Assembly (NCBI GenBank): GCA_937930535.1
Contig: CALGKJ010000057.1
Coordinates: forward strand, 1-37,212
Reading direction: 5' to 3'
Source: an uncultured Clostridia bacterium
Lineage (GTDB): Bacteria; Bacillota; Clostridia; Lutisporales; Lutisporaceae
Length of the DNA: 37,212 nucleotides
Both the position numbers and the translations under genes were made by a program. Of this stretch, positions 1,865-19,985 are shown piece after piece. The notes below the pieces were generated by a model that saw only the letters and a list, made by a program, of their open reading frames with translations, searched no databases and was not told where the DNA came from. The stretch's first letter is position 1, and each line of letters starts with the position of its first letter.

Positions 1865-1900
1865 TTTGCACATCACTCCTAAAATGGATTTTTGTGTTTG

Positions 1901-2377
1901 TTAACCGATCACCCATATTCCACCAATCTTGATTGCCAATACGGTTATAAAAGTCTGATATGCAATATCCATAATGATATTTGCAATGCTGTCTGCATCT
2001 GCTTTGTTATTCATTCTCATAACATTCCAGTGTGACCATAGTCCGCTGATTCCATAAATATACATGCCTACGATAGTTCCCAGCCAGAAGCCCCCTCTGA
2101 ACCAAATGCACATAACGCCCATGGCTCCAAGTCCCAACTGTGAAAATCCATATTTTATCTGGAAAGGTCCACCCGGCCAGCCTACAGCCTTTGCATTTTG
2201 CTTTGCGAAAATCATGTTGCTTAATAAGCCTGTTATACCTAAAGATCCAAAGGTTACAACAAACTGATGCAGTAACAGCACGGTACAAATCTGTGAAATA
2301 TCTGATGGGAAACCCTTCATATATAAATCAACTACCGCTGTAATAATACCTAGTATCCATAAAACTAAAAAAAACAT
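1901..2377 (-). CDS. small integral membrane protein inside the PKS/NRPS operon
   Basis: This is a 158-residue protein with about four hydrophobic segments: an N-terminal one (FFLVLWILGIITAVV), one near residues 30-55, a glycine-rich pair (LGLGAMGVMCIWF and FWLGTIVGMYIYGI), and a C-terminal one (TFITVLAIKIGGIWVI). It looks somewhat like the DUF6790 family of small bacterial membrane proteins, but that match is from memory and weak. The start is set by AGGAGG ending 8 nt before the ATG at 2377; an in-frame upstream ATG would overlap that ribosome binding site. The gene lies 30 nt after the ACP-aminotransferase gene and 36 nt before the NRPS gene, so it is co-transcribed with the assembly line. 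Possible roles are membrane docking of the synthetase, export or self-protection. Nothing in the sequence decides among them. Confidence 0.8.
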   Translation of the reverse strand: MFFLVLWILGIITAVVDLYMKGFPSDISQICTVLLLHQFVVTFGSLGITGLLSNMIFAKQNAKAVGWPGGPFQIKYGFSQLGLGAMGVMCIWFRGGFWLGTIVGMYIYGISGLWSHWNVMRMNNKADADSIANIIMDIAYQTFITVLAIKIGGIWVIG

Positions 2378-2407
2378 TTTTCTTTCCTCCTTCATTAAAA
2401 GCTTTTT

Positions 2408-4375: not shown

Positions 4376-4415
4376 AAGTAATGTTCCTCCCATTATTCAT
4401 CTATACTCTTGATTT

Positions 4416-7277
4416 TTATCTGAGCATGTCTTCAAGAATTTTTTTCTGTATCAACAACTGCTCATTCTGTTTCTTTAATAACTGCTCCATACAAGCCAAG
4501 CTTCCGTCTGCTGCTTTTGTTTCGCTTTCAGGGATCTTTTCTGTGGTTTTTTCCTTCCACAAGGTCTTTCTGTCAAAAGGATAATTAGGTAAAACAATTT
4601 TCTTTCTATTGTAATTTTCATAAAAGCTATTCCAATTCAGCTTTATACCCTTGAGATATAATTGCTTTAAGGATTCTAAAAGCTGCTTATAATCCCCTAT
4701 TCCCTTTCTAAGGGAAGGAACAAAAACTGCATTTTCATTTTGAACACACTGTCCAGCTAAGCCGCATAAGGTTGCATTTCCGCCGATTTCAATAAATGTT
4801 GTTACGCCTAACTTATCTGCTTCCTGCATTGCATTCATAAAATGAACCGTATTCTCAAGATGTTCCATCCAGTAAGCCTTATTTTCAAAAGTACCCTTTT
4901 CTTCAACTTTTCCTGTAACAGTTGAAATAACCTTGACTGCTGCTTTGTTGCAGATAATATTATCCAAGCTGTTTCCATATATTTCTGTATATTCTTTCAT
5001 TGCAACGGAATGATATGGATATAAAATCCCAAGATCATTAACAAACACTCTGGTCTTTTTATGCAGTACACTGATTACCGCATCCACTTCCTCACTTAGC
5101 CCTGAAACTGTAATGTTTTTAGGTGCATTTACTGCTGCAATGGATACATTTTTACATCCGCTTTCCAAAATAGCTGCCCTCATGGTTGCTTCATCTACTA
5201 GAACGCCTGCCATTTTTCCATTTGGCTTAACACTTGCCATCAGTCTGCTTCTCATTGCCATCATCTTGGTAGCATCTTCGAAGCTCAGCATTCCGATATA
5301 GCATGAGGCCGCATACTCTCCGACACTGTGCCCGATAACATAATCTGGTCTAATGCCTAATGAATCCCAGACTTTGGTTAAAGAATATTCCAAGGAAAAG
5401 ATTATGGGCTGTGAATAAAGAGCATCCGTTAACCGTTCTTCATCCTCTCCAAATAGAGTATCCTTAACGGAAATCTCCAATAGTTCCTCAAATCTGGCAT
5501 TACACAAATCAAAGGTTTCTCTAAACTCTTTGGATTTTTCATAAAATTCTCTGGCTGCATCTTTATAAATAGAGCCTTGCCCTGTAAACAAGTATGCTAT
5601 TTTTCTCTTTTTATTTTCAGCTTTTCCCATGTAGAATTTTTCTGCTTCCTCATTTTTCAGTGCATTATCTATTTCCTTTATAATCTGCTCTTTGCTGTTT
5701 CCAACTACTGCAAACCGGTATTCGTTTTTATCCCTTGTAATGTTGGTTGAGTATGCAATGTCACTGAGCCTTTCATCGGATACGATAATATAGTCCCTGG
5801 TTTGAGAAACCGCATTTGATAGTACGTTTTTGTTCTTTGCAGATATAGTCAACATGCTTTCTGGCATGTCTGCCTTTTCTTGCTGCTGTTCTTCCGCCGC
5901 TTCTTCTGCTTCCTCCAGTATTAAGTGAACTAACGTTCCACTGATTCCAAAGGAGCTGATACCGGCTCTTCTCTTTTTTCCTTTGCTATCCCATTCTGTC
6001 AGCTTGTTTACTACTTGAACTTTTTCCCAATCTATATTGGGGTTTGGGTTCTTAAAGTGAATGCTTGGGGGAAGCTTTTTATGTTTTAGGGCAAGCAGTA
6101 CTTTTATCGTACTTGCTATTCCTGCGGCAGCTTCCAGATGTCCTATATTGGATTTTACTGCACCAACCCTAATTGGCTCTTTTCTGTTTTTGAATACTCC
6201 GCATATTGCCTGTGCCTCGATAAAGTCACCAAGAGTGGTTCCTGTTCCATGAGCTTCAACATAATCAACATCTTCTACGCCCAGCTCTGCCTGTTTTAAG
6301 GCTTCTGCAATGACTCTTTGTTCAGCCAGCCCATTTGGTGCGTAAAATCCGTTGGATTTTCCATCCTGCCCCATATAGATTCCTCTTATTAATGCCTCAA
6401 TGCTGTTTTTGTCTCTTTTGGCATCCTTTAATCTTTTTAGTATAACTATTCCGCAGCCTTCTCCTCTTCCGAAACCGTCTGCAGATGCGTCAAAGGTTTT
6501 GCAGCGTCCGTCCGGTGACAGTGCATTAAACTGTGACAGTCCTATATATGGCTCTGGACTCAGTATGAGATTTACGCCTCCCACAATAGCCAAATCACAC
6601 TGCCCGTTTCTGAGACTATCTACTGCCATGTTCATCGCCGCCAACGACGATGAACATGCAGTGCTCAAACATGCTGCTGGTCCTTTAAAATCATAGAAAT
6701 AGGAGAGTCTGCCTGCTGCTGAGTGAGAACATACCCCAACCAGTGAATATGGTTCGATATCATTGACATTGCCCGAAATCATTTCTTTGCTGACGTAGTC
6801 TACAGCATCTATGCCTACAAATACTCCTGTTTTGCTTCCCCTTAGCTGTTCGATATCAAGTCCGGCATTTTCCAGGGCTTCCCAGCTTACCTCCAGTAAA
6901 AGCTTTTGCTGAGGATCTACAGATACTCCCTCTAGTGCAGATATTTCAAAGTGTATGTTATCAAACTTCTTAATATCTGCATCTAAAAAGGAACCATATG
7001 GTGTGCTCATTTTTCCTTTGCCTTGTTCCCCCTCACTAAAGTAGGAGTCTGCTGAAAATCTATCAGGCTTTATTTCTGTAACAGCATCAAAGCCCTGAGA
7101 CAGCTTATCCCAGAATAGTTGTGAGTTATTTGCGCCCCCTGGAAATCTGCAATTGTAGCCTATAACTGCAATTTCCCTGTTTTCTTTTGCTTTTTTTAGT
7201 TCCAAGTCCAGCTCTTTGATTTTGTCAGCAGCCTTTTTCAAGGCTGCTTTATATTTGCTTTCATCGAATGTATTCAT
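4416..7277 (-). CDS. type I PKS, ketosynthase-acyltransferase (no own ACP)
   Basis: The protein has 953 residues. An N-terminal coiled-coil docking segment (residues 5-35, lysine- and leucine-rich) precedes a KS with the cysteine in LSTACSSSL (about 206) and histidines in EAHGTGT and SNIGHLEAAAG. An AT follows: LFTGQGS near 563 and the serine in GHSVGEYAAS near 652. The protein ends in a glutamine-rich coiled coil with no carrier, so the ACP must come from the next protein. Some positions differ from the family norm. The AT specificity motif is YPYH rather than HAFH (malonyl) or YASH (methylmalonyl). In the KS, GDPIEA reads GDFIEA and GTNAH reads GTLVH. This AT is the best candidate to take the unusual extender predicted from the upstream genes (inference). 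The ATG at 7277 has AGAGG 8 nt upstream; the preceding gene ends at 7293. Confidence 0.93.
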   Translation of the reverse strand: MNTFDESKYKAALKKAADKIKELDLELKKAKENREIAVIGYNCRFPGGANNSQLFWDKLSQGFDAVTEIKPDRFSADSYFSEGEQGKGKMSTPYGSFLDADIKKFDNIHFEISALEGVSVDPQQKLLLEVSWEALENAGLDIEQLRGSKTGVFVGIDAVDYVSKEMISGNVNDIEPYSLVGVCSHSAAGRLSYFYDFKGPAACLSTACSSSLAAMNMAVDSLRNGQCDLAIVGGVNLILSPEPYIGLSQFNALSPDGRCKTFDASADGFGRGEGCGIVILKRLKDAKRDKNSIEALIRGIYMGQDGKSNGFYAPNGLAEQRVIAEALKQAELGVEDVDYVEAHGTGTTLGDFIEAQAICGVFKNRKEPIRVGAVKSNIGHLEAAAGIASTIKVLLALKHKKLPPSIHFKNPNPNIDWEKVQVVNKLTEWDSKGKKRRAGISSFGISGTLVHLILEEAEEAAEEQQQEKADMPESMLTISAKNKNVLSNAVSQTRDYIIVSDERLSDIAYSTNITRDKNEYRFAVVGNSKEQIIKEIDNALKNEEAEKFYMGKAENKKRKIAYLFTGQGSIYKDAAREFYEKSKEFRETFDLCNARFEELLEISVKDTLFGEDEERLTDALYSQPIIFSLEYSLTKVWDSLGIRPDYVIGHSVGEYAASCYIGMLSFEDATKMMAMRSRLMASVKPNGKMAGVLVDEATMRAAILESGCKNVSIAAVNAPKNITVSGLSEEVDAVISVLHKKTRVFVNDLGILYPYHSVAMKEYTEIYGNSLDNIICNKAAVKVISTVTGKVEEKGTFENKAYWMEHLENTVHFMNAMQEADKLGVTTFIEIGGNATLCGLAGQCVQNENAVFVPSLRKGIGDYKQLLESLKQLYLKGIKLNWNSFYENYNRKKIVLPNYPFDRKTLWKEKTTEKIPESETKAADGSLACMEQLLKKQNEQLLIQKKILEDMLR

Positions 7278-7292
7278 ACTTGACACCTCTAA

Positions 7293-10200
7293 CTATAACG
7301 TTAATGTATCTATTTCAGATAACAAGTCATCTATGCTTTCTGATTGCTCAGCTTCTTCTTCCTTTTCTTCTATGTTTGCATCTTCTATAACAAGAACTTC
7401 ATCTAGCAGGTATTCTGACAGCTTAACAATAGTAGGGTAGTTGAAGAATACGGATACATTAATATCAATGCTTAAAAGCTTATTAATTGCGGTACGCATG
7501 GAGAATATCATCAAGGAGTCTGCGCCCTGCACTTGGAAGGCTTCATCTACTGATAGTAATTGTCCCTTTTCAAATCCCATTATTTTTCCGCATATACCTT
7601 GTAATTTTTCAATCAACAATTCTTCTCTTTCTTCTCTGGATAAGCTCTTGAGTGTTTCTAATACAGTATTGTCTTTATCATCCTGTTCTGTATCTGATTT
7701 TGTGTCCTTTTCTGCTACAAGCTTGGATAAGAATTCTTTCTTTCCTGCTCCATTTTCCAAGGAACTTCCCAAAACATTCCAATCAACATCAGCAATCAGC
7801 AGATTTTCATATGGTTGATCCATGAAGTCTTCAATAATCTTCTGACCCTGTTCTTTTCCGAAGGTTTTTAAGCCCATTCTTTCCATTGTGTTTGATACAG
7901 AATCCTTGCCTGCTGCCATTCCGCTTTCGCTCCATGGTCCCCAACAGAAGGTATAGCCTGGAAGCTTGTTCATGTTCATATAAACTGCAAAGGCATTTTG
8001 GAAATAGTTTGCAGATGCATAATTAGCTTGTCCCATATTTCCTACCATACTGGTAATTGAGGAAAGCATCATAAAGAAATCTAATGCTTCTTTCTCAACT
8101 GTATTATAAAGATTTACAGTTCCGGCTACCTTTGGACTCATTACCTTTTCAAAATCATTCCAGTCAAGGTGAATCAGCATTTTGTCATTTAGAACCCCTG
8201 CTGTATGCACGATACCTCTGATTTGAGGCATTGAAGCTTTCATTTCATCCATTGCTGCTTTTAAGCTTTCATAATCACATACATCTGCATAAGCAATCTT
8301 TATTTGAACACCTGCTTCTGTAAACTTCTGAATAGCTTCCTTAGCTTTTTGTCCTGGTTCTCTTCTGCTCATTAGTATAAGGTTTTTAGCACCTGATTTT
8401 ACAAGCTGTTCTGCATAGATAAGACCTAATGCACCAGTTCCGCCGGTAATCAGGTAGGAAGCATCTTCTTTCAGCAGTATTTTCTTTTTCTTATCCAAGC
8501 CTTTTTTCAAGTAGTCTCCATGAGAAACTAATCTTCCTGCATAACGCTTGGTTCCTCTTACGCAAATTTCCTGTACGCTGTTTCCTAATACTTCATAGAT
8601 AAAATCTGTATTTTCATAGAAAGCTGTTTCATCAGCATCAACGATTCCGCCAAATATTTCTGGATATTCTATGCTTACTACCTTTGCCAATCCCCATACC
8701 ATGGAGCCTGACAGGTTAAGCTTCTTTACATCTCCAAGCTTTTGAACATCCTTTGTTACAATTTTAATTTTGCTTCCCAGTGTATATCCTTCTTCGTTCA
8801 TTACCTGTACCATATAGAGCAATGCTTTTACAGATGCATAATTCATCTGCTCTCCAGCTTCTGCAGGAACACTGTCTTTTGTAGTACAATAAATGATATT
8901 TAAGTCCCTCTTTATGCCATCCTTGCATATTTCACCAAGAAGCTTGGACCAGTCTTCTTTGTTTTCCTGATTGATAATATATGCGTTTTCATTTTCTTTT
9001 TGGTATTCATTTCCGGCTGCTACAGATACTGCTGTAATGTCAAGTGCTTTCAGCTTTTCCCTTAAAGTATCTGCTGCTGCTTTCTCATCTGCGTAAAGAA
9101 TGTATTTCTTATTTGCTGGAAGCTCTTCTAATTTTATGATGTCTTCTGTTTGTATCCAGTCTGTGTGATAATATAATTTATTCAGGTTTCTCATTTCTCT
9201 TAACAAGCTGTTGCTGTCTGTGATTTTAGCCATCAGGTTATCAATTCTCATTAAGACTTCACCTTTTTCGTTATATACTATAACGTCCGCATAGGTGATG
9301 TCATTTTTCACACTGGATTTTGAGTAGCACCATAATTGGTCGGATTCTCTATAATTAAAGGTCAGCTTTTCAAGATAGTATGGAATAACCGTCTTGTTTC
9401 CTTCCTCTTCATTAACATTGGTACGTTCTTTTAACTTTTCCAAAACCAGTGCTATTCCTGTTTGGAATATGGAGTCAATGGTTCCTGGGTAAAGAACATA
9501 ATCTTTAAAGTATGGAACGGTTTTTAATGGCTCTACTACGCAAACACACTCATTGTCTCCGTAGCTGATGCGCTTGATTCTTCGGAAACCGTCTCCCAGC
9601 ATAAAGCCGGATTTGGTCATGAAATAATAGATACTGTCTTCGATATCCTCTTTGTAGGAAAGCCCCTTGTATGCATCAATATCTGCATGCATATCTGTAT
9701 ATTTATACTCATCCTGAATATAAACATCTCCTTTTGAGTGCAGAAGCCATTTATCATTTCTGGAGCTGTAGTCTCTACTTACAATACTGAATTTTGAATC
9801 GTCTCCGCCTTTTTCAATGCAGATCTGAACCTGTCTTTGTTCGTCTTCCTTGGCTGCCAATGGAGCTCTGAATTCTACCTTGCTTAATACACAGCTCTTA
9901 GCATTTCCAATTTCTTTAACAGCAGAAAGCATCATTGCTGTATGGGCTGCTGCCGGTGAAATTGCTGCACCGAAAATAACATGCTCTCTCATAAAGTATG
10001 GTTCCAGTGCAGTAAATTTACTTTGGAATACTACAGCATCACTCATAAATGGAAGGTCTATTCTTTGTCCAAGAATATTATGATAATCCTCAGCATTTAT
10101 GTTTTCTGTTTCTCTGTCATATTTCAGCTCCATCCAGTATTTATTCTTGTCATATGGATAGTTAGGAAGCTTTACCTTATTCCATTCTGTTTTTCCTGCA

Positions 10201-13200
10201 AAGGTTATTTTATTCCAATTTACATTTACGCCTGCTGCATAAAGTAATGCAATTTCTTCTGCAAGCTGTGCTTTATCTGCTTTATTGATGTTCAAGCTTG
10301 ATGCAATTACTCTTTCTTCTTCAAATATCAATTTGCAGAGGGCTGCTAATACTCTGTTAGAGCCTACTTCCAGCAGTAAGTAGTTTTCTTTCTTATCTAT
10401 GCTTGTAACTGCACCGTAGAAATCAACTTTTTCTCTGATATGTGTAGTCCAGTATTCGCTGTCAAGTATCTGTCCGTTTTCCAGTTCCTTTGCATAAAGG
10501 GCAGAAACAAATCTTCTCTGTGCTTCATTATACTTCACTTCTTTTGCTATCATATTGAAGTCTTCCAATGCTGGATCCATAAGCATAGAGTGGAATGCAT
10601 GAGATACTTTTAATTCCTTTACACGCATACCTTCACTAACAGCCTTGGCTGCTACTTTTTCCACATCATCAGCATGTCCAGAAATTACACAGGTTTCTTT
10701 TGCATTTCGTGCTGCAATACATACTGTTTCTTCATAGCCGCTAAGAAGCTTTTGCACCTTCTCTTCGTCTGCAAAAACTGTAGCCATCTTGCCTCTTCCT
10801 GGTGCCATATCCATAAGTCTTCCTCTGATTGAAACCAATTTTGCAGCATCTTCAAGAGTCATAATGCCTGCTGCAACAGCCGCTGCATATTCTCCAATGC
10901 TGTGTCCCATAACTATCTCCGGCTTCACGCCATAGCTCTCCCACATTTTGTATAGAGCATACTCAATTGCAAAGATTAATGGCTGCGCATAAACAGTTTT
11001 TTCAATCACCTGTTCGTCTGCATTTTTTCCGTAAATCATATCATTGATGGATTTCAACAAATATGGTTTAAATAATTTATCACAAGTATCAAAGGCTTGT
11101 TTAAATACCTCATTGGTTTCATATAGTAATCTACCCATGCCGACATACTGTGAGCCCTGTCCTGTAAACATAAATGCAACTTTTCTGTCTTTCTGCATCA
11201 TATTTGCTTTATCAGTGTTTACAACCACACCTTCTGCTGAGCCATCCTTTAGATAGCTTTCCATTCTATCTAGTATCATATCTCTGCTGCTGCCGCAAAC
11301 TACAAATCTGTAATCCAAATCCGCTCTTCCGGTATTGGCTGTATAAATGATGTTTTCTAATTCGCCTTCAGCAGCTTCCTTGATTAATGCATGGTATTTT
11401 TCAACCAGTGCTTTCAAGGACTTTTCACTCTTTGCTGAAATCTTAAGTATATAGTCTATTCCATCTTGGATCTTTGCTTCGCTCTTAGGCAAGTTTTCTG
11501 CTTTGTATTCTTCAATAATTACATGTGCATTTGAACCGCCGAATCCAAATCCATTAACTGCTGCTGTTCTTAAGCCATCTTTTTTCTCCCATGGTGTATG
11601 TTTGCTAACAACTTCCGCATTTGAGTCTTCCCAGTTTATTAATGGGTTTGGTGTATGGAAATGAAGATTCGCAGGGATCATATTATTTTTCATGGATAAT
11701 AAAACCTTAGTAATGGATGCAACACCTGCTGATGCTTCTAAATGTCCCATATTGGATTTTACTGATCCTATCTTTAATAGCTCGTCCTTGCTTCTGCCTC
11801 TTCCGTAGGTTGCAGCAACTGCATCTACTTCGATTGGGTCTCCAAGCTTTGTGCCTGTTCCATGCATTTCTATATAATCCACATCTAAAGGATTCAAATG
11901 TGCCTCCATGCATGTTTGACGAATCAGCTTTGCCTGTGCTTCTCCGTTTGGTGCTGTAAGACCGTTGCTCTTGCCATCCTGATTAATTCCGCTTCCTCTG
12001 ATTACACCAAGGATTTCGTCTTTATCCCTGATAGCCTCTGATAATCTCTTAAGAATAAGAACGCCGCCGCCTTCTCCTCTTCCGTATCCGTTTGCAGATG
12101 CGTCAAAGGCTTTACTATGTCCATCTACAGAGGTCGCCTGTAGTTTTGAGAAACCAACGTTGGTAGTAGGAGATTCCATTAAGTTAATTCCTGCTACAAC
12201 CTGCATATCTGCTTGTCCTGCCAGCATGGCTGTACATGCCAGATGTAAAGCTGTAAGTGAGGATGAACATGCTGTATCTACTGCAAGACAAGGTCCTTCA
12301 AATCCGAAGGTATAAGATACTCTTCCGCATGCAGTACTCATACAAGTTCCTGTAAGGGCATATGCGCCTATTCTTGATAATTCTCCCGAATACAATTGTG
12401 CTAAAGTATATTCATTATTGCATATTCCCACATATACACCAGTATTGCTTCCGCTGTATTTGGTAATATCCATATTTGCATTTTCAAAAGCTTCCCAAGT
12501 AAGCTCCAGAAGCATTCTCTGCTGAGGATCAAGTGCCGCTGCTTCCTTTGGTGAAATATTGAAAAATCTTGCATCGAATTCATCAATGTCAATATTTAAA
12601 AATCCACCTTTTCTACAATACATTTTTCCAGGAGCTTCCTTATTCTCGTCATAATATTTTTCAAGCTCCCATCTGCCTTCTGGAATATCGCATACACCAT
12701 CTATTCCCTGCATAAGCATATTCCAGTACTCATCTATGCTGTTTGCCCCACCTGGGAAACGGCAGCTCATTCCTACAATAGCGATTTTATCCTTTGCTTG
12801 CTCCACATTCATACGCTCTGAGCTCTTTTCTTTTTCTGTTGTACCAACCATTGAATATATGTGTTCAGACAGTTTATTGACGTTGAAATGGCTGAAAATA
12901 TCCGCAGCACCAATGCTTACATTGAGATCATCATTTAGTTTTTCAACAAATGGCGGAATATTAATGGATACTATACCATATTCAGAAAAAGGTACATCGT
13001 AATCTGATACTTTTATGTTGAACTTTTCTTCCATGTATTTTACAATCTTCATTAAGACTGTACGTTTTGTATGTTTCTCACTATTATTTGATTTCTTTTC
13101 AGCTATAGGTTGTTTTTGACTAACATTATTTATTTTGTTTAGGAGTTCTTGATATGCCCCGGAATTATACTGTTCGGTTAATCCGCGTCTAAATGCTTTT

Positions 13201-14807
13201 CCACTGTTTGTTTTAGGAATATTATCAACAGGAAGCACCTCACTAATGGTTAATCCAATTTTTTCAAAAATTATAGATGTTATTTTGTTTTTAAACTCAA
13301 TAAATTCCTGCATATCATTTTGATTATTTATGTCAATATCAGTTTTTATAAAAGCTATAACCTTTTCATTCTCATTGCCGTGCTTTGTTCCATTGCATAC
13401 TGCACACTGCTGATATTTTGTATCCTGCAAGCTGCTGTTAATCATAGCTTCTATAAGCTGGCATGATATTTTCTTGCCATTGGCTACAACAAGTTCCTTT
13501 TCTCTTCCAATAATGAGCAGGTTGCCTTCTCTTACAAATCCTACATCACCTGTACACAACCATCCATCTCTCAAAACTTTTTGGGTTGCTTCTTCGTCCT
13601 GATAGTATCCGCTTGTAATACAAGGACCGCTTACACAAACTTGTCCAAGATACCCATCGGGAAGCTCCTGAAAATCATCATTCCTAATGCTGAGCTCTAT
13701 TGTTTCCAGTATAGTTCCCATTTCCAAAAATGAGTTGTCTACTTTTTCAGTATCTGCTACTTCCTCACAGTAGACTTTATCGCCATTTACAAGCTTTTCA
13801 TTTGTAATTTTGATTGTTCTTGCTTTCTTTCCAGCTCTATTGGCAGATACCATAATAGTAGCTTCTGTTAATCCGTACAACGGATACACCTTATCTACAG
13901 TAAATCCATATTTGCTTACTGCATCACAGAACTCTTTATACAGTGCATAATTTACCTGTTCTCCGCCGATAAACATGCTTTTTACACATGACATATCCCA
14001 ATTGAAGTTTTTCTCCGAGTTATTATAAACACTTAGAAAATGCTTTAATGCAAATGGCAGTGAACCTATTCTGGTTGCACCAAATTCATGAATTGCCTCC
14101 GCCCATATTAAAGGTTGATTCATATACAGCTTGCTGGAAATGAAACAATGCTCTGCGCCTGACATTAGCGGAACAAGATGGAATGTTATTAGTCCATAAC
14201 AATGTGTTAATGGTGACCATGATATAAATCTGTCATTTTCATCAATGTCATAATGCTTAGTAAAGCCATATACGTTGGCTGCCACATTGGATTTTTTTAT
14301 GATTACACCATGTGGTGTGCCTGTTGTTCCAGAAGAATACAGAACATATAAGATATCATCTGGTGAAGACTCATATTCAGCCTCCATATTATAGGGACAG
14401 CTTAAAATATCGTTATAGTAATTATTTAAATCTACTATTTTTACGTTACTCTGCGTATCCATATTATCACTTATAATTATTGGATTGTCTGATTTTGATA
14501 AAACATGAGATAAAAGACTATCTCCAGCATTATTTTTAGTTGCATCTATGGGTACGGCAATAAAGCCGCCTATTGCACAGGCCCAGAAAGAATAAAAGAA
14601 TAATTCCAGGTTTTCACATCTAATAATAACCTCTGCCTTTTTTCCCACTCCTAGATTTTTTAGTATCTCAGAAACATAAAAGCTCCTATTCCATAATTCT
14701 TTGTATGAAATAAACTTTTTTTCGTCTTTTGAAAGTACAATAGTTATGCCTTTATTTGTCTTGCCCAGCTCATTAAGTACTTTCAACACATCGTCCGTTT
14801 TTCTCAT
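7293..14807 (-). CDS. loading and first extension PKS: AMP-ligase-ACP-KS-AT-DH-KR-ACP
   Basis: This 2504-residue megasynthase starts with an acyl-AMP ligase: SSGTTGTPHGV near 160, YGLTEA near 309, CTGDVG near 417 and the lysine in PKTNSGKA near 532. The first ACP has its serine near 608 in YGIVSI. The KS follows (cysteine in DTACSSSL near 846, MHGTGT near 980, SNMGHLEAS near 1018). The AT has GHSIGEYAAA near 1301 and a malonyl-type HAFH near 1402. The DH has an intact HVIFGAAISP (HxxxGxxxxP) near 1607 and DSIFQ near 1777. The KR has GGTGALG near 2121, a B-type-like LND, and SSITS/QANYASAN near 2244-2262. There is no ER. The last ACP has GADSL near 2427, and an acidic tail probably docks to the next KS. 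The predicted action is to activate a carboxylic acid, extend it with malonyl and leave an enoyl thioester. The ATG has AGGAGG 8 nt upstream. Confidence 0.95.
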   Translation of the reverse strand: MRKTDDVLKVLNELGKTNKGITIVLSKDEKKFISYKELWNRSFYVSEILKNLGVGKKAEVIIRCENLELFFYSFWACAIGGFIAVPIDATKNNAGDSLLSHVLSKSDNPIIISDNMDTQSNVKIVDLNNYYNDILSCPYNMEAEYESSPDDILYVLYSSGTTGTPHGVIIKKSNVAANVYGFTKHYDIDENDRFISWSPLTHCYGLITFHLVPLMSGAEHCFISSKLYMNQPLIWAEAIHEFGATRIGSLPFALKHFLSVYNNSEKNFNWDMSCVKSMFIGGEQVNYALYKEFCDAVSKYGFTVDKVYPLYGLTEATIMVSANRAGKKARTIKITNEKLVNGDKVYCEEVADTEKVDNSFLEMGTILETIELSIRNDDFQELPDGYLGQVCVSGPCITSGYYQDEEATQKVLRDGWLCTGDVGFVREGNLLIIGREKELVVANGKKISCQLIEAMINSSLQDTKYQQCAVCNGTKHGNENEKVIAFIKTDIDINNQNDMQEFIEFKNKITSIIFEKIGLTISEVLPVDNIPKTNSGKAFRRGLTEQYNSGAYQELLNKINNVSQKQPIAEKKSNNSEKHTKRTVLMKIVKYMEEKFNIKVSDYDVPFSEYGIVSINIPPFVEKLNDDLNVSIGAADIFSHFNVNKLSEHIYSMVGTTEKEKSSERMNVEQAKDKIAIVGMSCRFPGGANSIDEYWNMLMQGIDGVCDIPEGRWELEKYYDENKEAPGKMYCRKGGFLNIDIDEFDARFFNISPKEAAALDPQQRMLLELTWEAFENANMDITKYSGSNTGVYVGICNNEYTLAQLYSGELSRIGAYALTGTCMSTACGRVSYTFGFEGPCLAVDTACSSSLTALHLACTAMLAGQADMQVVAGINLMESPTTNVGFSKLQATSVDGHSKAFDASANGYGRGEGGGVLILKRLSEAIRDKDEILGVIRGSGINQDGKSNGLTAPNGEAQAKLIRQTCMEAHLNPLDVDYIEMHGTGTKLGDPIEVDAVAATYGRGRSKDELLKIGSVKSNMGHLEASAGVASITKVLLSMKNNMIPANLHFHTPNPLINWEDSNAEVVSKHTPWEKKDGLRTAAVNGFGFGGSNAHVIIEEYKAENLPKSEAKIQDGIDYILKISAKSEKSLKALVEKYHALIKEAAEGELENIIYTANTGRADLDYRFVVCGSSRDMILDRMESYLKDGSAEGVVVNTDKANMMQKDRKVAFMFTGQGSQYVGMGRLLYETNEVFKQAFDTCDKLFKPYLLKSINDMIYGKNADEQVIEKTVYAQPLIFAIEYALYKMWESYGVKPEIVMGHSIGEYAAAVAAGIMTLEDAAKLVSIRGRLMDMAPGRGKMATVFADEEKVQKLLSGYEETVCIAARNAKETCVISGHADDVEKVAAKAVSEGMRVKELKVSHAFHSMLMDPALEDFNMIAKEVKYNEAQRRFVSALYAKELENGQILDSEYWTTHIREKVDFYGAVTSIDKKENYLLLEVGSNRVLAALCKLIFEEERVIASSLNINKADKAQLAEEIALLYAAGVNVNWNKITFAGKTEWNKVKLPNYPYDKNKYWMELKYDRETENINAEDYHNILGQRIDLPFMSDAVVFQSKFTALEPYFMREHVIFGAAISPAAAHTAMMLSAVKEIGNAKSCVLSKVEFRAPLAAKEDEQRQVQICIEKGGDDSKFSIVSRDYSSRNDKWLLHSKGDVYIQDEYKYTDMHADIDAYKGLSYKEDIEDSIYYFMTKSGFMLGDGFRRIKRISYGDNECVCVVEPLKTVPYFKDYVLYPGTIDSIFQTGIALVLEKLKERTNVNEEEGNKTVIPYYLEKLTFNYRESDQLWCYSKSSVKNDITYADVIVYNEKGEVLMRIDNLMAKITDSNSLLREMRNLNKLYYHTDWIQTEDIIKLEELPANKKYILYADEKAAADTLREKLKALDITAVSVAAGNEYQKENENAYIINQENKEDWSKLLGEICKDGIKRDLNIIYCTTKDSVPAEAGEQMNYASVKALLYMVQVMNEEGYTLGSKIKIVTKDVQKLGDVKKLNLSGSMVWGLAKVVSIEYPEIFGGIVDADETAFYENTDFIYEVLGNSVQEICVRGTKRYAGRLVSHGDYLKKGLDKKKKILLKEDASYLITGGTGALGLIYAEQLVKSGAKNLILMSRREPGQKAKEAIQKFTEAGVQIKIAYADVCDYESLKAAMDEMKASMPQIRGIVHTAGVLNDKMLIHLDWNDFEKVMSPKVAGTVNLYNTVEKEALDFFMMLSSITSMVGNMGQANYASANYFQNAFAVYMNMNKLPGYTFCWGPWSESGMAAGKDSVSNTMERMGLKTFGKEQGQKIIEDFMDQPYENLLIADVDWNVLGSSLENGAGKKEFLSKLVAEKDTKSDTEQDDKDNTVLETLKSLSREEREELLIEKLQGICGKIMGFEKGQLLSVDEAFQVQGADSLMIFSMRTAINKLLSIDINVSVFFNYPTIVKLSEYLLDEVLVIEDANIEEKEEEAEQSESIDDLLSEIDTLTL

Positions 14808-14897: not shown

Positions 14898-15878
14898 CTA
14901 CGCTTCTGCTATTTTCTCCAGTTCATTAAGTACAGCCTCAATATTATCCACCATAGAATAATCTGCATAGTCGAATATGGCTGCATTTTTATCAGTATTT
15001 ACAGCAACTATTATTTCTGCATTCTTAATTCCAACCATATGCTGGCTTGCACCTGATACACCGAAGCTTACATAAATATGAGGAGATATACTTTTACCTG
15101 ACTGACCAACCTGTCTTGCTTTGTCAATAAATCCTTCTTCAACAACCGCTCTGGTTCCAACTACGCCGGCACCGCATTTTTCAGCAATGCTGTATATTCT
15201 TTCAAGAGTTTCTTTATTTTTAACTCCTCTTCCGATACAGAAAACTTTTTTATAACTATTAATATCAATATCTTTCTTTACTTCTTTTTCTATACGCTCT
15301 AATACTTCCCAAGAATCTGAACGCTTCTCTTCTATTCCATTATATGTAAATTCCTCTATGGTTCCTTGTTCGCGCCTATCATACTCTTTTTTTATAAATA
15401 CATCCTTTTTTACAGTTCCCATCATAATGCTGCAATTAATACATTTGATCTTCGCAATAACTGAATCATTGATGGCAGCTCTTGAAAAATACAGTTCTCC
15501 AGTTTCATCAAAATCGATATCGATACAATCCGCTGTAAGTCCTGCTTCAAATCTGGTAGATAAGATGGCTGCTGTCATTTTTCCAATTACCGTGGCTGGA
15601 ACCAATATGATTTTAGGTATAATCTGCTTAACCATATCTGCAATAATTTCTACAAAATATGGTGTATCAAATCGCTGGTCCTGTCTGCAAAAAACTATAT
15701 TATCTGCGCCATATCTAAATAAATTATCAGCTTTACCATCATCCCAGTGTCCTACACATAGAGCTGATACCTTACTATCGCATTTATCTCCAAGACTTCT
15801 TGCCTTTGTTATGATCTGTAGTACATGTTCGCCATCATATTCCTGTGAATCACATATAACAACTATATCCTTCCCCAT
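14898..15878 (-). CDS. etfA: electron transfer flavoprotein alpha subunit
   Basis: This 326-residue protein is a normal-length EtfA. The N-terminal half is the ETF nucleotide-binding fold. The C-terminal half is the FAD domain, with RQVGQSGKSISPHIYVSFG near 260, GVSGASQHMVGIKNA, INxD-like AVNTDKNAAIF and ADYSMVDN. The protein pairs with the EtfB encoded just upstream and carries electrons from an acyl-CoA-dehydrogenase-type flavoenzyme. The nearest such enzyme is the one at 16719-17858 in the same operon. Its presence inside a PKS cluster suggests a dedicated electron outlet for that enzyme in an organism without oxygen as acceptor (inference). It lies 60 nt after etfB and 90 nt before the large PKS gene. 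A GGAAGGATG-type ribosome binding site precedes the ATG. Confidence 0.95.
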   Translation of the reverse strand: MGKDIVVICDSQEYDGEHVLQIITKARSLGDKCDSKVSALCVGHWDDGKADNLFRYGADNIVFCRQDQRFDTPYFVEIIADMVKQIIPKIILVPATVIGKMTAAILSTRFEAGLTADCIDIDFDETGELYFSRAAINDSVIAKIKCINCSIMMGTVKKDVFIKKEYDRREQGTIEEFTYNGIEEKRSDSWEVLERIEKEVKKDIDINSYKKVFCIGRGVKNKETLERIYSIAEKCGAGVVGTRAVVEEGFIDKARQVGQSGKSISPHIYVSFGVSGASQHMVGIKNAEIIVAVNTDKNAAIFDYADYSMVDNIEAVLNELEKIAEA

Positions 15879-15938
15879 TTATAAATCATCCTTCCTGACG
15901 ACTTTATACTGCTATAAGGTTTTTAGCTTAAAGCTTCT

Positions 15939-16706
15939 CTATGAATTGTGTGCTTTACCGGTAATTATGTTATATAATAATTCCGCTTTTTCTTCTGCAT
16001 TACCCTCAATATATGATTTTGGCTTTTTCACTATTTCCTTTTGAACATTAAGAACTTTTGTTTTTGAACCATCCAAGCCGCATTTACTTGCATCAACTTC
16101 CAGATCAGCGGCATTCCACACAATAATATCTTTTTTCTTAGCTCTTTTTAATGCCAGCAGACTTATTTGAGGCTGTGTAACTACAAAATCATAAAATGCA
16201 ACCACTGCCGGAGTTTTCAGTTTTCCTATTATAATTTCTGTTTCTTTTACCTGCTTCACCTTAATTGCAGAATCTTGTGCATCTAAAATTTCTGCTGCAT
16301 CCGGCAGACAATAATAATTCAGCCGTTCACCAATTCCATATACTACTTGTCCCGTTTCACCATCAATGGTTCGTCTGCCGCATACTATCATGTCAACATT
16401 TCCGATTTTTTCAATTGCTTTTGCTAATATGTATGACGTAGCAACTGTATCCGAGCCTCTGAACATATCATCATTTAGAATAATTGACTCATCTGCTCCA
16501 GCTGCAATAGCCTTTTGTAATAAGGCTTTTGAACTCATCGGCCCCATACATAAACAAATAATTTTGCAGTCAATGAGTTTCTTTAATTCTATGGTTTTTT
16601 CGAATGCATATAAATCGTAAGGATTCATCAAAAAATCTTCAACACGTGATTCATTGGGATAAATCAATTCCGACTTTATAGGTTTAATACATATTACTAT
16701 CTTCAT
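15939..16706 (-). CDS. etfB: electron transfer flavoprotein beta subunit
   Basis: This 255-residue protein has typical EtfB features: the start MKIVICIKPI, NPYDLYAFEKTIELK near 28, MGP, AAGADESIIL near 70, and CGRRTIDGETGQV near 110, which is the conserved nucleotide-contact region. I took the ATG at 16706, preceded by AAGGGG at 5 nt; an in-frame GTG at 16712 falls inside that ribosome binding site. It starts 12 nt after the dehydrogenase stop codon, so the two are tightly linked in translation. Together with EtfA it forms the soluble heterodimer that reoxidises an acyl-dehydrogenase flavin. Whether it serves only the cluster's dehydrogenase or also general metabolism cannot be told from sequence. 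Confidence 0.95.
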   Translation of the reverse strand: MKIVICIKPIKSELIYPNESRVEDFLMNPYDLYAFEKTIELKKLIDCKIICLCMGPMSSKALLQKAIAAGADESIILNDDMFRGSDTVATSYILAKAIEKIGNVDMIVCGRRTIDGETGQVVYGIGERLNYYCLPDAAEILDAQDSAIKVKQVKETEIIIGKLKTPAVVAFYDFVVTQPQISLLALKRAKKKDIIVWNAADLEVDASKCGLDGSKTKVLNVQKEIVKKPKSYIEGNAEEKAELLYNIITGKAHNS

Positions 16707-16718
16707 AGGCACCCCTTA

Positions 16719-17858
16719 TCATATGCATCTTGCATTTGCCATATTATAGATGGTATTCTTTTGCATTTCGTTAGTACCTGAGTAGATGCTGCATGCCAGA
16801 GCATCTCTTAGCTCTCTTTCCATATCGTATTCTTTTGTATATCCGTATGCTCCCAAAATCTGCATTGCATCTCTACAGGCTTTTATATAGTTTTCGCTTA
16901 CAAAAAGCTTAAAAATAGAAGTTTCCAAATAAGCGGATTTTTTATTATCCTTTAACCAAGCAATCTTATAAAGCATCAATCTTGCCATTTCAATGCCTAC
17001 TTCCATTTCTGCAATTTTATGGGATACCGACTGATTCACACCAATTGGTTTTCCAAACTGTTTTCTTCCATTGGCTTGTTTTATGCTTTCTTCCATGACT
17101 CTCTGCATTACGCCAATATGAGGAGCAAATTCAAAACATCTTTCCCACTCAATGGCTCCTGTCATAATGTTGCCTCCACTGTTTAACTTGCCTATCACAT
17201 TTTCCTTTGGTACTCTTACATTATTTAAAATAAGTTCGCTTGTGGGACATGCACCAAGTCCCATTTTTTCAATATCTTTTCCTGTACTTACTCCTTCAAA
17301 GCTTCGCTCAACTACAAAGGCAGTCACCTTCTTATCAGGAGCTTCCTTTGTAACAGCGAAAACAATAAAAATATCTGCAATAGGACCATTGGAAATAAAC
17401 ATTTTGGTTCCATTCAGCACATAATAATCTCCATCCTCAACTGCATTGGTAGTCATTGAAAACGCATCGGAGCCTGCTTCAGCCTCTGTAATAGCAATAG
17501 CACCGATTTTTTTCCCTTCAACCATTACAGGAAGATATTTATCTTTAAGTTCCTTTGAACCATATAAATAGATAATATTTTGAGATACCCATATATGATT
17601 ATTAATTACAAATATAAAACCATTGTTTTTACATGCGTATCCAAGGCTTTCAAATGCAATAGCCGCAGTCTCATAGCTTTCTCCAAGACCGCCATATTCT
17701 TCACCTATAGTTATTCCCAGCAAGCCAAAATCACTGACTTTTTTCCACATGTCCATAGAAAATTCTTCGTAGTACCTGCTGTCATTGAGATTTTCTCTTG
17801 CAAAATCAATGATTTCCTGTCTGAATTCCTTTTGCTCTTTTGTTAATGAAAACTCCAT
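16719..17858 (-). CDS. acyl-CoA-dehydrogenase-like enzyme, probable FkbI/ZmaE-type carrier-bound oxidase
   Basis: The protein has 379 residues, the usual family length. Family marks include EEYGGLGES, AITEAEAGSDAFSM, MFISNG, GRKQFGKPIG and the C-terminal QILGAYGYTKEYDMERELRD. The catalytic glutamate of medium- and short-chain enzymes sits in a YEGT motif; here it reads IYSGTNE, so that base is a serine. A glutamate in IEWER (near 240) lines up with the alternative base of isovaleryl-CoA dehydrogenase. Neighbours are a free ACP and a 3-hydroxyacyl-CoA-dehydrogenase-like enzyme upstream and EtfBA downstream. In the FkbG-K and ZmaD-N pathways this trio oxidises a carrier-bound glyceryl or seryl unit to a substituted malonyl-ACP. 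The role is inferred from that context. A beta-oxidation-type acyl dehydrogenase is the alternative. Confidence 0.85.
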   Translation of the reverse strand: MEFSLTKEQKEFRQEIIDFARENLNDSRYYEEFSMDMWKKVSDFGLLGITIGEEYGGLGESYETAAIAFESLGYACKNNGFIFVINNHIWVSQNIIYLYGSKELKDKYLPVMVEGKKIGAIAITEAEAGSDAFSMTTNAVEDGDYYVLNGTKMFISNGPIADIFIVFAVTKEAPDKKVTAFVVERSFEGVSTGKDIEKMGLGACPTSELILNNVRVPKENVIGKLNSGGNIMTGAIEWERCFEFAPHIGVMQRVMEESIKQANGRKQFGKPIGVNQSVSHKIAEMEVGIEMARLMLYKIAWLKDNKKSAYLETSIFKLFVSENYIKACRDAMQILGAYGYTKEYDMERELRDALACSIYSGTNEMQKNTIYNMANARCI

Positions 17859-17949
17859 TAATATTCCCTTCCTTCACAAACCAGCTTTACATAATCCGGT
17901 ATATTTCTTTCATAGGACATATCTGCCTCAAGAATAACTACATCGAAGC

Positions 17950-18183
17950 CTATACCAGTTTCTTTTCGATTAAGGCAGCAATGGAATTGATATCTTTAAA
18001 ATTGTCCAAATCTAATTCTGTATTATCGATTGTAATGTTAAATTCATTTTCAACAAAATTAACTAAGTTCATTGCAAACAATGAATTTACCAGCCCTTTT
18101 TCAAAAATATTATCTGTATCCTCGATTTCATTTACATTAACAAACTTTGATAAAAACACTTTTATTTTTTCTTTTACGTTCAT
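17950..18183 (-). CDS. free-standing acyl carrier protein, FkbJ/ZmaD-like
   Basis: This is a 77-residue carrier protein. The phosphopantetheine serine lies in GLVNSLFAMNLVNF, with asparagine in place of the usual aspartate before it. A VNSLFAMxLVxFVExEF sequence and the following TELDLDNF are what I recall of carriers that hold alkoxy-, hydroxy- or aminomalonyl units (FkbJ, ZmaD, ZmaH, AsmN), rather than of fatty-acid or PKS-module ACPs. The ATG at 18183 has TAAGGG 8 nt upstream; the GTG at 18192 lies inside that site. It sits 20 nt after the FkbK-like dehydrogenase gene and 91 nt before the acyl-CoA-dehydrogenase-like gene. It probably holds the C3 unit while both enzymes act on it. Confidence 0.9.
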   Translation of the reverse strand: MNVKEKIKVFLSKFVNVNEIEDTDNIFEKGLVNSLFAMNLVNFVENEFNITIDNTELDLDNFKDINSIAALIEKKLV

Positions 18184-18203
18184 ATTATTCACCCTTACTT
18201 TCT

Positions 18204-19037
18204 TTAATAATTATAAAAGCCTTTACCGGCTTTTCTGCCTGTAAATCCTGCATATACCATTTGCTTCATAAGCGGACATGCTCTGTATTTTGAATCTTCA
18301 TAGTGGTCATATAGTACCTTTAAAGAATCCAACACTGTATCTACACCAATCAAATCGGCTGTTTCAAGAGGTCCCATCTTATGTCCAAATGCTTTTTTAA
18401 AAACGTTATCAATCTGCTCTGCCGTAGCAACTCCTTCATATACCAATGCAGCCGCCTCATTCATAAACAAATGAGATAAACGATTGGATACAAAGCCTGC
18501 GCTGTCATTTACAACTTCAATTTCAATTCCTGCGCCTTTCAGTAAACTTCGAATACTCTCGATTGTTTCCTTAGAAGTCTTGCAGCCCTTAATAACTTCT
18601 GCGAAATTTTTCATTGGTACAGGATTCATAAAATGTACTCCGATAACTTTATCCGCCCTGTTAGTATAGGAGCCGATAAGTGTGATAGGGATACATGAGG
18701 TATTTACCATATAAATACACTCTTCTTTGCAGACCTTCTCTAGATCTCTGTATACAGTTTCTTTAATTTTTATATCCTCGTTTACATTTTCAATAATAAA
18801 GTCCATGTCTTTTAATTCATCATACCCAGAAGTAACTTTTATATTGGAAATAATCCCCTCAACATCTATAGCTTTGTTAAACATACTGGCTATCTTTAGA
18901 CTTTTTTTAATGTCTTCTCTTGCGGTATCAAGTACCTTTGGGGCAATGTCGTATAAAACAACCTCCTGCCCATACTGTGCAAATCTCTGAGCTACCCCTT
19001 TGCCCATCACACCTGCACCGATTACTCCAATTTTCAT
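18204..19037 (-). CDS. 3-hydroxyacyl-CoA dehydrogenase family enzyme, FkbK/ZmaG-like
   Basis: This 277-residue NAD-binding protein begins with the Rossmann motif GVIGAGVMGKGVAQ. Family residues follow: NTSCIPITLIGSYT, the catalytic histidine in GVHFMNPVPMK (about 137), DSAGFVSNRL, FGHKMGPLETADLIGVD, and GRKAGKGFYNY at the C-terminus. The segment YEDSKYRACPLMKQMV near 250 resembles my memory of FkbK/ZmaG proteins, which oxidise carrier-bound glyceryl or seryl groups to the aldehyde, but primary 3-hydroxybutyryl-CoA dehydrogenases share most of the rest. It is the first gene of the operon, with AAGGAGG 7 nt before the ATG. The adjacent special ACP favours a role in extender-unit supply over fatty-acid oxidation. 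No FkbH-type loader or serine-activating enzyme is visible in the window. Confidence 0.88.
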   Translation of the reverse strand: MKIGVIGAGVMGKGVAQRFAQYGQEVVLYDIAPKVLDTAREDIKKSLKIASMFNKAIDVEGIISNIKVTSGYDELKDMDFIIENVNEDIKIKETVYRDLEKVCKEECIYMVNTSCIPITLIGSYTNRADKVIGVHFMNPVPMKNFAEVIKGCKTSKETIESIRSLLKGAGIEIEVVNDSAGFVSNRLSHLFMNEAAALVYEGVATAEQIDNVFKKAFGHKMGPLETADLIGVDTVLDSLKVLYDHYEDSKYRACPLMKQMVYAGFTGRKAGKGFYNY

Positions 19038-19104: not shown

Positions 19105-19985
19105 AACACACAACCTATTTATTACCAACGCAGGCATCTTGATAACTGAATCAATAAAACAACGTACCACTTCTCTATCTCTTTTACAGAGCTATAAAAA
19201 ACATTGTTTATAACCTCTGATTTCAACCATCCCCATAATCCTTCAATCAAATTCAATTTAGGACTGTAGGGTGGCAAAAATACAAAGTTAAAACGATTTC
19301 CATGTTCCTGTAAAAAAGGCTTAAGTAGCTTAGCGTGATGGATACGAGAATTATCTAGGATCATCGCAATTTTGCCTGTAGGATATAGCTTTAGGATGTT
19401 CTGCAAGAAGTTTAGAAACACTGCTGCATCATATTTTTCATTTTCCTCACAGTAAATATGACCTGTTTCATAATCTAGAACACCTAAAAGCTGTACTCCT
19501 TCATGCTTTCCATAAGTCGGTATAATTCTCTGTTGTCCTTTATGAAACCATGTTTTCTGTATAGCTTGATAATCACGAATCATGGATTCATCTTCAAACA
19601 AGATATGGTCAATATTTCCGTCAAGAAGGTTTTTTTAAAAGCTCAAAATCCTGCTTGAACTGTTCCTGTTTTTGAGGGTCAGCCTTGGCTAAAGTGTAAG
19701 TAGGTCTTGTAAAGCTAAGATCCATCCGGTATAGTACCTCAGCCATACCTCGGTGACTATACTGTACACCCCAAGTTTTTTTAACCCATTCCTGAACAAT
19801 ATTGATATACCAGTTCTTTCGATTTGGAAAGCCTACTTCATCAGGTGTTTTTGTTGTTATTATTAACGCTAATTCCGTTTCCTGCTCTGGTGTAAGAAAT
19901 CGTGGGGCACCTGAATTAGGCTTTGGGTTAAGTCCATCTAATCCACCATTATTATATTTTGAAATATAATAGATTTTAGGTTTAA
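19096..19985 (-). pseudogene. decayed IS630-family transposase
   Basis: Three reading-frame pieces join into one DDE transposase of the IS630 family. The N-terminal piece (about 19985 to 19623) carries GGLDGLNPKPNSGAPRFLTP. The middle piece (about 19622 to 19165) carries the acidic residues in FEDESMI, ILDNSRIHHAK and LNLIEGLWGWLKSEV. The C-terminal piece (to 19096) reads FIDSVIKMPALVINRLCVKL. The first break is in a run of seven A (minus strand), where dropping one A restores the frame; such runs can be programmed frameshift sites. The second break, near 19165, and the missing N-terminal DNA-binding region (a stop codon lies just upstream) show that the copy is dead. It lies immediately upstream of the biosynthetic operon. 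Confidence 0.85.

What the first reader, a model, noticed from the sequence alone, without database searches (positions are those of the whole stretch)
14898..19037. Extender-unit cassette with its own electron transfer flavoprotein in a probable anaerobe
The five genes ahead of the PKS are an FkbK/ZmaG-like dehydrogenase, an FkbJ/ZmaD-like ACP (GLVNSLFAM, TELDLDNF), an FkbI/ZmaE-like acyl dehydrogenase, EtfB and EtfA. The first three match the enzyme set known to make methoxy-, hydroxy- or aminomalonyl-ACP in Streptomyces and Bacillus clusters. Adding dedicated EtfBA is not part of the pathways I know and would give the dehydrogenase an electron outlet without oxygen. The loader (FkbH-type or serine adenylation) is not in the window, so the exact unit is open.
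Basis: partly seen in the sequence, partly recalled or inferred. Interest (0 to 1): 0.82.

Follow-up and report, generated by a model that had tools for sequence, protein, structure and literature searches.

The report
Polyketide building-block operon with own electron carrier
In an oxidase-free, Clostridia-type bacterium, the genes that turn a sugar-derived three-carbon acid into a rare polyketide building block use an enzyme from a different branch than the usual one plus their own electron-carrier protein, so this chemistry could run without oxygen.

Summary
The five genes are real and where stated: FkbK-type dehydrogenase, FkbJ-type ACP, an acyl-CoA-dehydrogenase-type flavoenzyme (I), EtfB and EtfA, in a ten-gene operon with PKS/NRPS genes. 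The missing loader was found: relatives carry fkbH between the ACP and I genes, and the window keeps the last ~31 codons of a deleted fkbH exactly there (17965-17858, - strand). Two refinements follow. First, the flavoenzyme is not an FkbI: it forms a 100/100 clade from anaerobic Bacillota nearest to prolyl-ACP oxidases (AnaB, PigA); joining it to FkbI (p-AU 6e-5) or butyryl-CoA dehydrogenase (p-AU 2e-6) is rejected. Second, EtfBA goes with that clade (14 of 14 loci), not with anaerobiosis: genuine FkbI cassettes, including one in this genome and five in other oxidase-free Clostridia, have none (0 of 13, one outgroup included). The cassette EtfB is a monophyletic, diverged lineage. The PKS2 AT has the signature of ATs taking ACP-bound units and precedes an ACP-aminotransferase, predicting an alpha-hydroxy-beta-amino acyl unit made without O2. 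One relative has a seryl-type adenylation enzyme instead of FkbH. In this genome the locus lacks its own loader, so it works in trans or not at all. No activity is shown.

The parts
18204..19037 (-). K: FkbK/ZmaG/ClbD-type NAD-dependent dehydrogenase (3HCDH fold), predicted oxidation of the C3 hydroxyl of glyceryl-ACP
   Evidence: Pfam 3HCDH_N 3.8e-48; in the tree with FkbK, ClbD and other cassette K, apart from the genome's own Hbd-like enzymes; 74% identical to L019 K
17950..18192 (-). J: FkbJ/ZmaD-type stand-alone ACP with GLVNSLFAM
   Evidence: PP-binding 1.4e-5; 68% identical to L019 J; shares xxVNSLFAM with FkbH-linked ACPs; the ACP tree itself is poorly resolved
17858..17965 (-). Scar of fkbH: last ~31 codons of the loader gene, ending in the TAA that overlaps the ATG of I (TAATG); the rest of fkbH is deleted
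   Evidence: tblastn of L019 FkbH, 64.5% over 31 aa, E 1.4e-5; DNA alignment; score 86 against next best 40; intact fkbH at this place in L018-L020, L022, L023, L025, L028, L029
16719..17858 (-). I: acyl-CoA-dehydrogenase-fold flavoenzyme of the prolyl-ACP-oxidase-like lineage, predicted oxidation of the ACP-bound semialdehyde to the carboxylate
   Evidence: Best solved relative AnaB 4irn (1.2e-95); best fold match of the model AnaB, then PigA; tree and AU tests; invariant E239 in the xxEWER helix, S in place of the Bcd/FkbI Glu in YSGT
15939..16712 (-). EtfB of the cassette lineage
   Evidence: Pfam ETF; cassette EtfB clade 100/100 against 29 other EtfB; fold nearest to bifurcating ETFs 4kpu, 5ol2, 7koe, 7qh2, 6fah
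14898..15878 (-). EtfA, FAD-binding subunit
   Evidence: Pfam ETF_alpha 7.5e-27; retains QVGQSGK and GVSGASQHMVGI motifs
7293..14807 (-). PKS1: fatty-acyl-AMP-ligase-like domain, ACP, KS, AT (malonyl-CoA type, RVK...HAFH), DH, KR, ACP
   Evidence: Pfam/NCBIfam; AT motifs
4416..7286 (-). PKS2: KS-AT; AT with FVN...YPYH, predicted to take the ACP-bound extender made by the cassette
   Evidence: Pfam; motif under the rule of PMC4207774; same motif in L018/L019 PKS2
2408..4393 (-). ACP plus class-III (GSA-type) aminotransferase, receives the PKS2 product
   Evidence: Pfam PP-binding 3e-10, Aminotran_3 7.7e-54; 70% identical protein directly after PKS2 in the genomes of L018/L019
1901..2395 (-). 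DUF6790 protein, same operon, function unknown
   Evidence: Pfam 1e-21; homologues beside the cassette in L027 and on the cluster contig of the L019 genome
2..1876 (-). NRPS C-A, cut by the contig end
   Evidence: Pfam; 55% identical to the start of a 3581-aa NRPS/PKS in the L019 genome

Best explanation
This is a hydroxymalonyl-ACP extender-unit cassette of a variant type. FkbH loads a D-glyceryl unit from 1,3-bisphosphoglycerate onto the ACP J. K oxidises C3-OH to the aldehyde with NAD+. The flavoenzyme I oxidises the aldehyde (as its hydrate) to the carboxylate, and the FADH2 formed is re-oxidised by the dedicated EtfBA, which passes the electrons on to NAD+, ferredoxin or the cell's butyryl-CoA dehydrogenase. 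J then delivers hydroxymalonyl to the AT of PKS2, whose beta-keto product is transaminated by ACP-AMT to an alpha-hydroxy-beta-amino acyl unit. Compared with FkbI cassettes, the last oxidation step has been taken over by an enzyme of the prolyl-ACP-oxidase lineage that is inherited together with its own ETF lineage. In this particular genome fkbH has been deleted from the locus, so glyceryl loading must come in trans (two stand-alone FkbH, on C105 and C230) or is lost. Shown by sequence: gene content, phylogeny, linkage, scar, AT motif. Inferred: every reaction, direction of electron flow, final acceptor, product.
For: FkbH above the curated cut-off beside I in relatives and the scar in the window. 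K in the FkbK group. EtfB next to I in 14 of 14 loci with this I lineage and 0 of 13 others (Fisher 5e-8, 2e-5 after collapsing near-identical loci). Cassette EtfB monophyletic 100/100. Swap of loader: G078 has no FkbH match and instead a stand-alone adenylation enzyme with code DVWHVSLID, against DVWHFSLID of ClbH-A1, the first A domain of the colibactin NRPS, which from my own knowledge takes serine. This fits I as the shared second oxidation step for glyceryl and seryl routes. PKS2 AT signature. The pathway glyceryl-ACP to hydroxymalonyl-ACP by NAD- and FAD-dependent dehydrogenases is described for FkbHIJK/Zma systems (PMC3679948, PMC5355916). No O-methyltransferase in the operon. No COX1 and four Fe-hydrogenase matches in the genome.
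Against: The nearest relatives of I with known activity oxidise prolyl-ACP, not semialdehydes. The window locus lacks an intact loader. L021 has I-EtfBA without FkbH or K within 10 kb. The ACP tree is unresolved. FkbI cassettes do without a dedicated ETF even in oxidase-free genomes, so an ETF is not a general need of the reaction.
Confidence: 0.78

Rival explanations
1. The cassette is a relic in this genome: with fkbH deleted, no glyceryl-ACP is made for J and the genes K-J-I-EtfBA are on the way out; PKS2 then uses malonyl-CoA or is silent.
For: fkbH is reduced to ~31 codons; no stand-alone FkbH closer than 50-53% to the L019 loader elsewhere in the genome; an IS630-type transposase remnant lies directly upstream.
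Against: K, J, I, EtfB, EtfA, PKS1, PKS2 and ACP-AMT are all open and about 59-81% identical to the intact cluster; two stand-alone FkbH remain in the genome, on C105 and C230. An assembly error in a 252-contig genome is not excluded.
Confidence: 0.3
2. I with EtfBA oxidises prolyl-J (or another amino-acyl-J) to a dehydroprolyl or pyrrolyl starter, as AnaB/PigA/RedW do.
For: Closest fold and sequence matches AnaB and PigA; best solved match of J is PltL.
Against: No prolyl ligase in the window; the linked loaders in relatives are FkbH or a seryl-type adenylation enzyme; K has no role in pyrrole making; J has the FkbJ motif VNSLFAM, not the PltL one.
Confidence: 0.07
3. A duplicated butyrate (bcd-etfBA-hbd) operon that works reductively on acyl chains of the PKS.
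For: Same fold families and similar gene order bcd-etfB-etfA; EtfB folds most like bifurcating ETFs.
Against: AU test rejects I with Bcd (p 2e-6); the genome's Bcd-EtfBA is a different locus, C88; K is FkbK, not Hbd; no crotonase or thiolase gene in the operon; fkbH scar.
Confidence: 0.04
4. The unit made is not hydroxymalonyl but methoxymalonyl or aminomalonyl.
For: A methyltransferase or seryl loader could act in trans; G078 uses the same I-EtfBA-J-K with a seryl-type adenylation enzyme.
Against: The loader of this cluster was FkbH, no O-methyltransferase in the operon, and no seryl loader beside the cassette.
Confidence: 0.12

Closest known systems
FkbH-I-J-K / ZmaN-D-G-E hydroxy(methoxy)malonyl-ACP pathway (zwittermicin, FK520, bafilomycin, butyrolactol)
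   Same: K and J homologous; FkbH loader in relatives and as a scar here; AT of ACP-bound-unit type; same two-step oxidation expected
   Different: The FkbI/ZmaE-type flavoenzyme is replaced by a separate lineage of the same superfamily; dedicated EtfBA added; fkbH deleted in this genome
ClbD-E-F-G aminomalonyl-ACP pathway (colibactin extender unit only)
   Same: Gene order K-J-I, K and J homologous; in G078 a seryl-type loader as in ClbH
   Different: ClbF is in the FkbI clade; no Etf; loader of the window's relatives is FkbH
Prolyl-ACP oxidases AnaB, PigA, RedW, Bmp3
   Same: Closest sequence and fold relatives of I; same catalytic-base position (E239) and YSGT in place of YEGT
   Different: No prolyl ligase; operates beside FkbH/K; has EtfBA partner; separate 100/100 clade
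Bcd-EtfAB and LctBC-type bifurcating ETF systems
   Same: EtfB keeps the Gly that is invariant in bifurcating ETFs; fold nearest to 4kpu/5ol2/7qh2
   Different: Cassette EtfB is its own clade; N-terminal loop 7-10 aa shorter, SDR arginine lost, DGD to DGE; EtfA RPAFGGN to RAAINDS; partner enzyme not Bcd

Membership tests
FkbHIJK/Zma extender-unit cassette | FkbH-type glyceryl loader | tested here: not met
   Only a C-terminal scar in the window; intact in eight relatives at the same place and at the end of the cassette in L024/L026
FkbHIJK/Zma extender-unit cassette | FkbK-type dehydrogenase | tested here: met
   Tree; 52-58% identity to other cassette K, 36% to the genome's Hbd-like enzyme
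FkbHIJK/Zma extender-unit cassette | FkbJ-type discrete ACP | tested here: inconclusive
   Motif VNSLFAM shared; ACP tree lacks support; best solved match is PltL
FkbHIJK/Zma extender-unit cassette | FkbI/ZmaE-type acyl-CoA-dehydrogenase homologue | tested here: not met
   AU test rejects I with the FkbI clade, p 6e-5; tree
FkbHIJK/Zma extender-unit cassette | An AT specific for ACP-bound units (no positive charge at the RXR slot) | tested here: met
   PKS2 AT FVN...YPYH; PKS1 AT RVK...HAFH as internal contrast (rule in PMC4207774)
Methoxymalonyl-ACP variant | O-methyltransferase in the cassette | tested here: not met
   No methyltransferase family in any of the ten operon proteins
Prolyl-ACP oxidase family | Sequence/fold lineage and active-site Glu | tested here: met
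   Tree with AnaB and kin 100/100 against FkbI and Bcd; AnaB top fold match, TM 0.92; E239 invariant
Prolyl-ACP oxidase family | Prolyl-AMP ligase partner and prolyl substrate | tested here: not met
   No such ligase in the window; linked loaders are FkbH or seryl-type A; activity itself not testable here
Bifurcating ETF | Gly at EtfB position 123 (A. fermentans numbering) | tested here: met
   Gly in all cassette EtfB; diagnostic per PMC12630350
Bifurcating ETF | Conserved beta-FAD/NADH region of EtfB/EtfA | tested here: inconclusive
   Several residues constant in the bifurcating set are replaced and the N-terminal loop is shortened; role of each residue not tested, cofactor content not testable
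Bcd-EtfAB complex | Acyl-CoA dehydrogenase of the Bcd clade | tested here: not met
   AU p 2e-6

The most novel reading that the evidence does not exclude
A distinct enzyme system, inherited as a unit in anaerobic Bacillota, in which a prolyl-oxidase-lineage flavoenzyme with an obligate, diverged ETF partner has replaced FkbI as the oxidase of ACP-bound semialdehydes, takes both glyceryl- and seryl-derived substrates, and conserves the low-potential electrons in NADH or ferredoxin.
Probability: 0.5. Interest if true: 0.72.

Novelty: new variant of a known kind. Interest (0 to 1): 0.62.

Why it matters
The natural electron acceptor of the flavoenzyme in hydroxy-, methoxy- and aminomalonyl-ACP pathways is, to my knowledge, unsettled; here it appears to be encoded in the operon and can be tested directly. 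The cassette would give an oxygen-independent way to place hydroxyl or amino groups on polyketides, where aerobes often use oxygenases, and it suggests that the same step was filled twice from different branches of one superfamily. As a mining handle, I-EtfB-EtfA next to fkbH or a stand-alone seryl adenylation enzyme marks such clusters in anaerobes. None of the full-text searches made here found a paper that links an ETF to a polyketide extender unit; the one hit for ETF plus extender unit is about auxin degradation. That library is open-access only.

Tried and rejected
Butyrate operon copy: rejected by phylogeny of I and K and by the own genome's separate Bcd-EtfBA on C88. Prolyl/pyrrole starter: no prolyl ligase, wrong partners. 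'ETF because anaerobe': rejected as a full explanation, because FkbI cassettes in oxidase-free Clostridia lack Etf. Loader elsewhere in the window: none; only the scar. Orthologous loader elsewhere in the genome: the two stand-alone FkbH (C105, C230) are 50-53% identical to the L019 one, so neither is the moved gene. The ACP tree gave no usable placement. The class search with I (391 genomes) gave only G000 and G078, so the type is rare. A mixed alignment with plasmid loci was not accepted for structure prediction; nine sequences were used instead. In one search the row named C105_A is not the stand-alone adenylation protein of C105 but the neighbouring 2638-aa ORF; it is not used as evidence.
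Full report
What is there. The window is a whole contig (C57, 37,212 bp) of a 4.69-Mb, 252-contig genome. Ten minus-strand genes with gaps of 6-91 bp form one operon: K (18204-19037), J (17950-18192), I (16719-17858), EtfB (15939-16712), EtfA (14898-15878), PKS1 (7293-14807; FAAL-like, ACP, KS, AT, DH, KR, ACP), PKS2 (4416-7286; KS-AT), ACP-AMT (2408-4393), DUF6790 (1901-2395) and an NRPS C-A cut by the contig end. The genome has no COX1 (8 of 14 control genomes do) and four Fe-hydrogenase matches, which fits an anaerobe.

The loader. A scan of one genome per species found 12 loci with close relatives of I; a genome search added G078. In L018 and L019, which carry the same cluster (I 80%, K 74%, EtfB and EtfA about 68%, PKS1 59%, PKS2 66% identical), the order is K-J-H-I-EtfB-EtfA-PKS1-PKS2. 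H of L019 scores 272 bits for FkbH against a cut-off of 147, and the corresponding genes of L020, L023, L026 and L028 score 247-263 bits. ACP-AMT follows PKS2 there at 70% identity, and homologues of DUF6790 and the NRPS are on the same contig. Searching the window with the L019 FkbH finds its C-terminus (residues 312-342) at 17965-17873, between the J stop and the I start: 64.5% identity, E 1.4e-5. It scores 86 where the next best place in the window scores 40, and the TAATG junction with I is kept. The window locus has therefore lost fkbH by deletion. Whether the deletion is real or an assembly fault cannot be decided here. The genome holds two stand-alone FkbH (C105, C230) and two FkbH domains inside large ORFs.

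The flavoenzyme. Its best solved relative is AnaB (E 1.2e-95), and FkbI (1r2j) is not in the best 60. In a 29-row tree the ETF-linked enzymes are one clade (100/100). They sit with the prolyl-ACP oxidases and a Streptomyces K-J-I enzyme (L035), away from a 100/100 FkbI group that includes FkbI itself, ClbF, FkbH-linked enzymes of cyanobacteria, Bacillaceae and Streptomyces, and the C105 and C230 enzymes of the same genome; and away from Bcd, where the genome's C88 enzyme falls. Forcing I with FkbI (p-AU 6e-5) or with Bcd (p-AU 2e-6) is rejected. The clade has an invariant Glu at 239 and Ser where Bcd and FkbI have the Glu of YEGT/IEGS. An AlphaFold model (pLDDT 83) matches AnaB first (TM 0.92) and PigA next.

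The electron-transfer flavoprotein. EtfB lies next to I in all 14 ETF-lineage loci, and no Etf is found in 13 loci with FkbI-type enzymes or the L035 outgroup. The loci were found with I, not with Etf, so the link is not circular. Five of the FkbI-type loci (L077, L078, L081, L083, L084) are in Clostridia without COX1, and C105 is in the window's own genome, so lack of oxygen alone does not explain the ETF. Cassette EtfB form one clade (100/100) against 29 other EtfB, most of them drawn from 118 genomes of the class. They keep the Gly that is invariant in bifurcating ETFs (PMC12630350), and the model is nearest to five bifurcating ETFs, but they have a shorter N-terminal loop and several substitutions at positions constant in the bifurcating set. 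Whether they bifurcate, confurcate or act as plain two-electron carriers is open.

What it does. In FkbHIJK/Zma systems glyceryl-ACP from 1,3-bisphosphoglycerate is oxidised by an NAD- and an FAD-dependent dehydrogenase to hydroxymalonyl-ACP (PMC3679948; PMC5355916). K groups with FkbK. In G078, for which the class search lists no FkbH match, the cassette I-EtfB-EtfA-J-K is followed by a stand-alone adenylation enzyme with code DVWHVSLID, one letter from the DVWHFSLID of ClbH-A1, which is known (own knowledge) to take serine. The same oxidation pair thus seems to serve glyceryl and seryl routes, which points to I as the semialdehyde-oxidising step. The AT of PKS2 has no positive charge at the RXR slot and YPYH, like ATs that take ACP-bound units (ZmaA-AT MCM/GAAH, ZmaF IAI/GPFH), while the PKS1 AT has RVK/HAFH of malonyl-CoA ATs. 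With ACP-AMT next, the module should give an alpha-hydroxy-beta-amino acyl unit. No O-methyltransferase is in the operon, so hydroxymalonyl is preferred over methoxymalonyl.

Limits. No activity is shown. The ACP tree is unresolved. L021 has I-EtfBA without FkbH or K within 10 kb, and L027 and L022 are cut by contig ends. The final electron acceptor is inferred: aldehyde oxidation gives low-potential electrons, so NAD+, ferredoxin or Bcd are all possible. The literature check covers an open-access library only.

Verdict. It works like an FkbHIJK cassette but is not a member in the strict sense: the I component fails the FkbI test and the loader is deleted here. I rate it a new variant of a known kind.

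Noticed in passing
L013/L014 (G000:C105), L013 4280-13546 and 14810-19817: A second, zwittermicin-like cassette in the same genome: FkbH domain inside a ~3088-aa NRPS, then FkbH, J, discrete AT, K, second J and an FkbI-type enzyme, without Etf. Similar clusters in L083 and L084.
   Followed up: partly
L015 10234-12490 (G000:C230): FkbI-type enzyme and stand-alone FkbH beside a carbon-nitrogen hydrolase, SHMT and RtcB, with no ACP, K or PKS recognised near: an odd setting for this pair.
   Followed up: partly
L010 5534-11183 (G078): ETF cassette with a stand-alone seryl-type adenylation enzyme instead of FkbH, in a genome without an FkbH match: probable aminomalonyl version.
   Followed up: yes
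L035 4816-8375 (Streptomyces sp. NBC_00984 plasmid): K-J-I nearest to the ETF clade but without Etf or FkbH; followed by a 399-aa protein with no Pfam match and an AT.
   Followed up: partly
many loci L048-L076: Many Clostridia carry 540-650-aa ORFs with an FkbH domain; their second half and setting were not examined.
   Followed up: no
window 19122-19601 (-): IS630-type (DDE_3) transposase fragment directly upstream of the operon.
   Followed up: no
L017 (G000:C88) 2-10937: The genome's Bcd-EtfBA lies directly behind a 2369-aa NRPS, not in a classical butyrate operon as far as the contig reaches.
   Followed up: no
L028 10146-11155 and L029 9995-11123: I is split by an apparent frameshift in both assemblies; sequencing error or decay not decided.
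   Followed up: no
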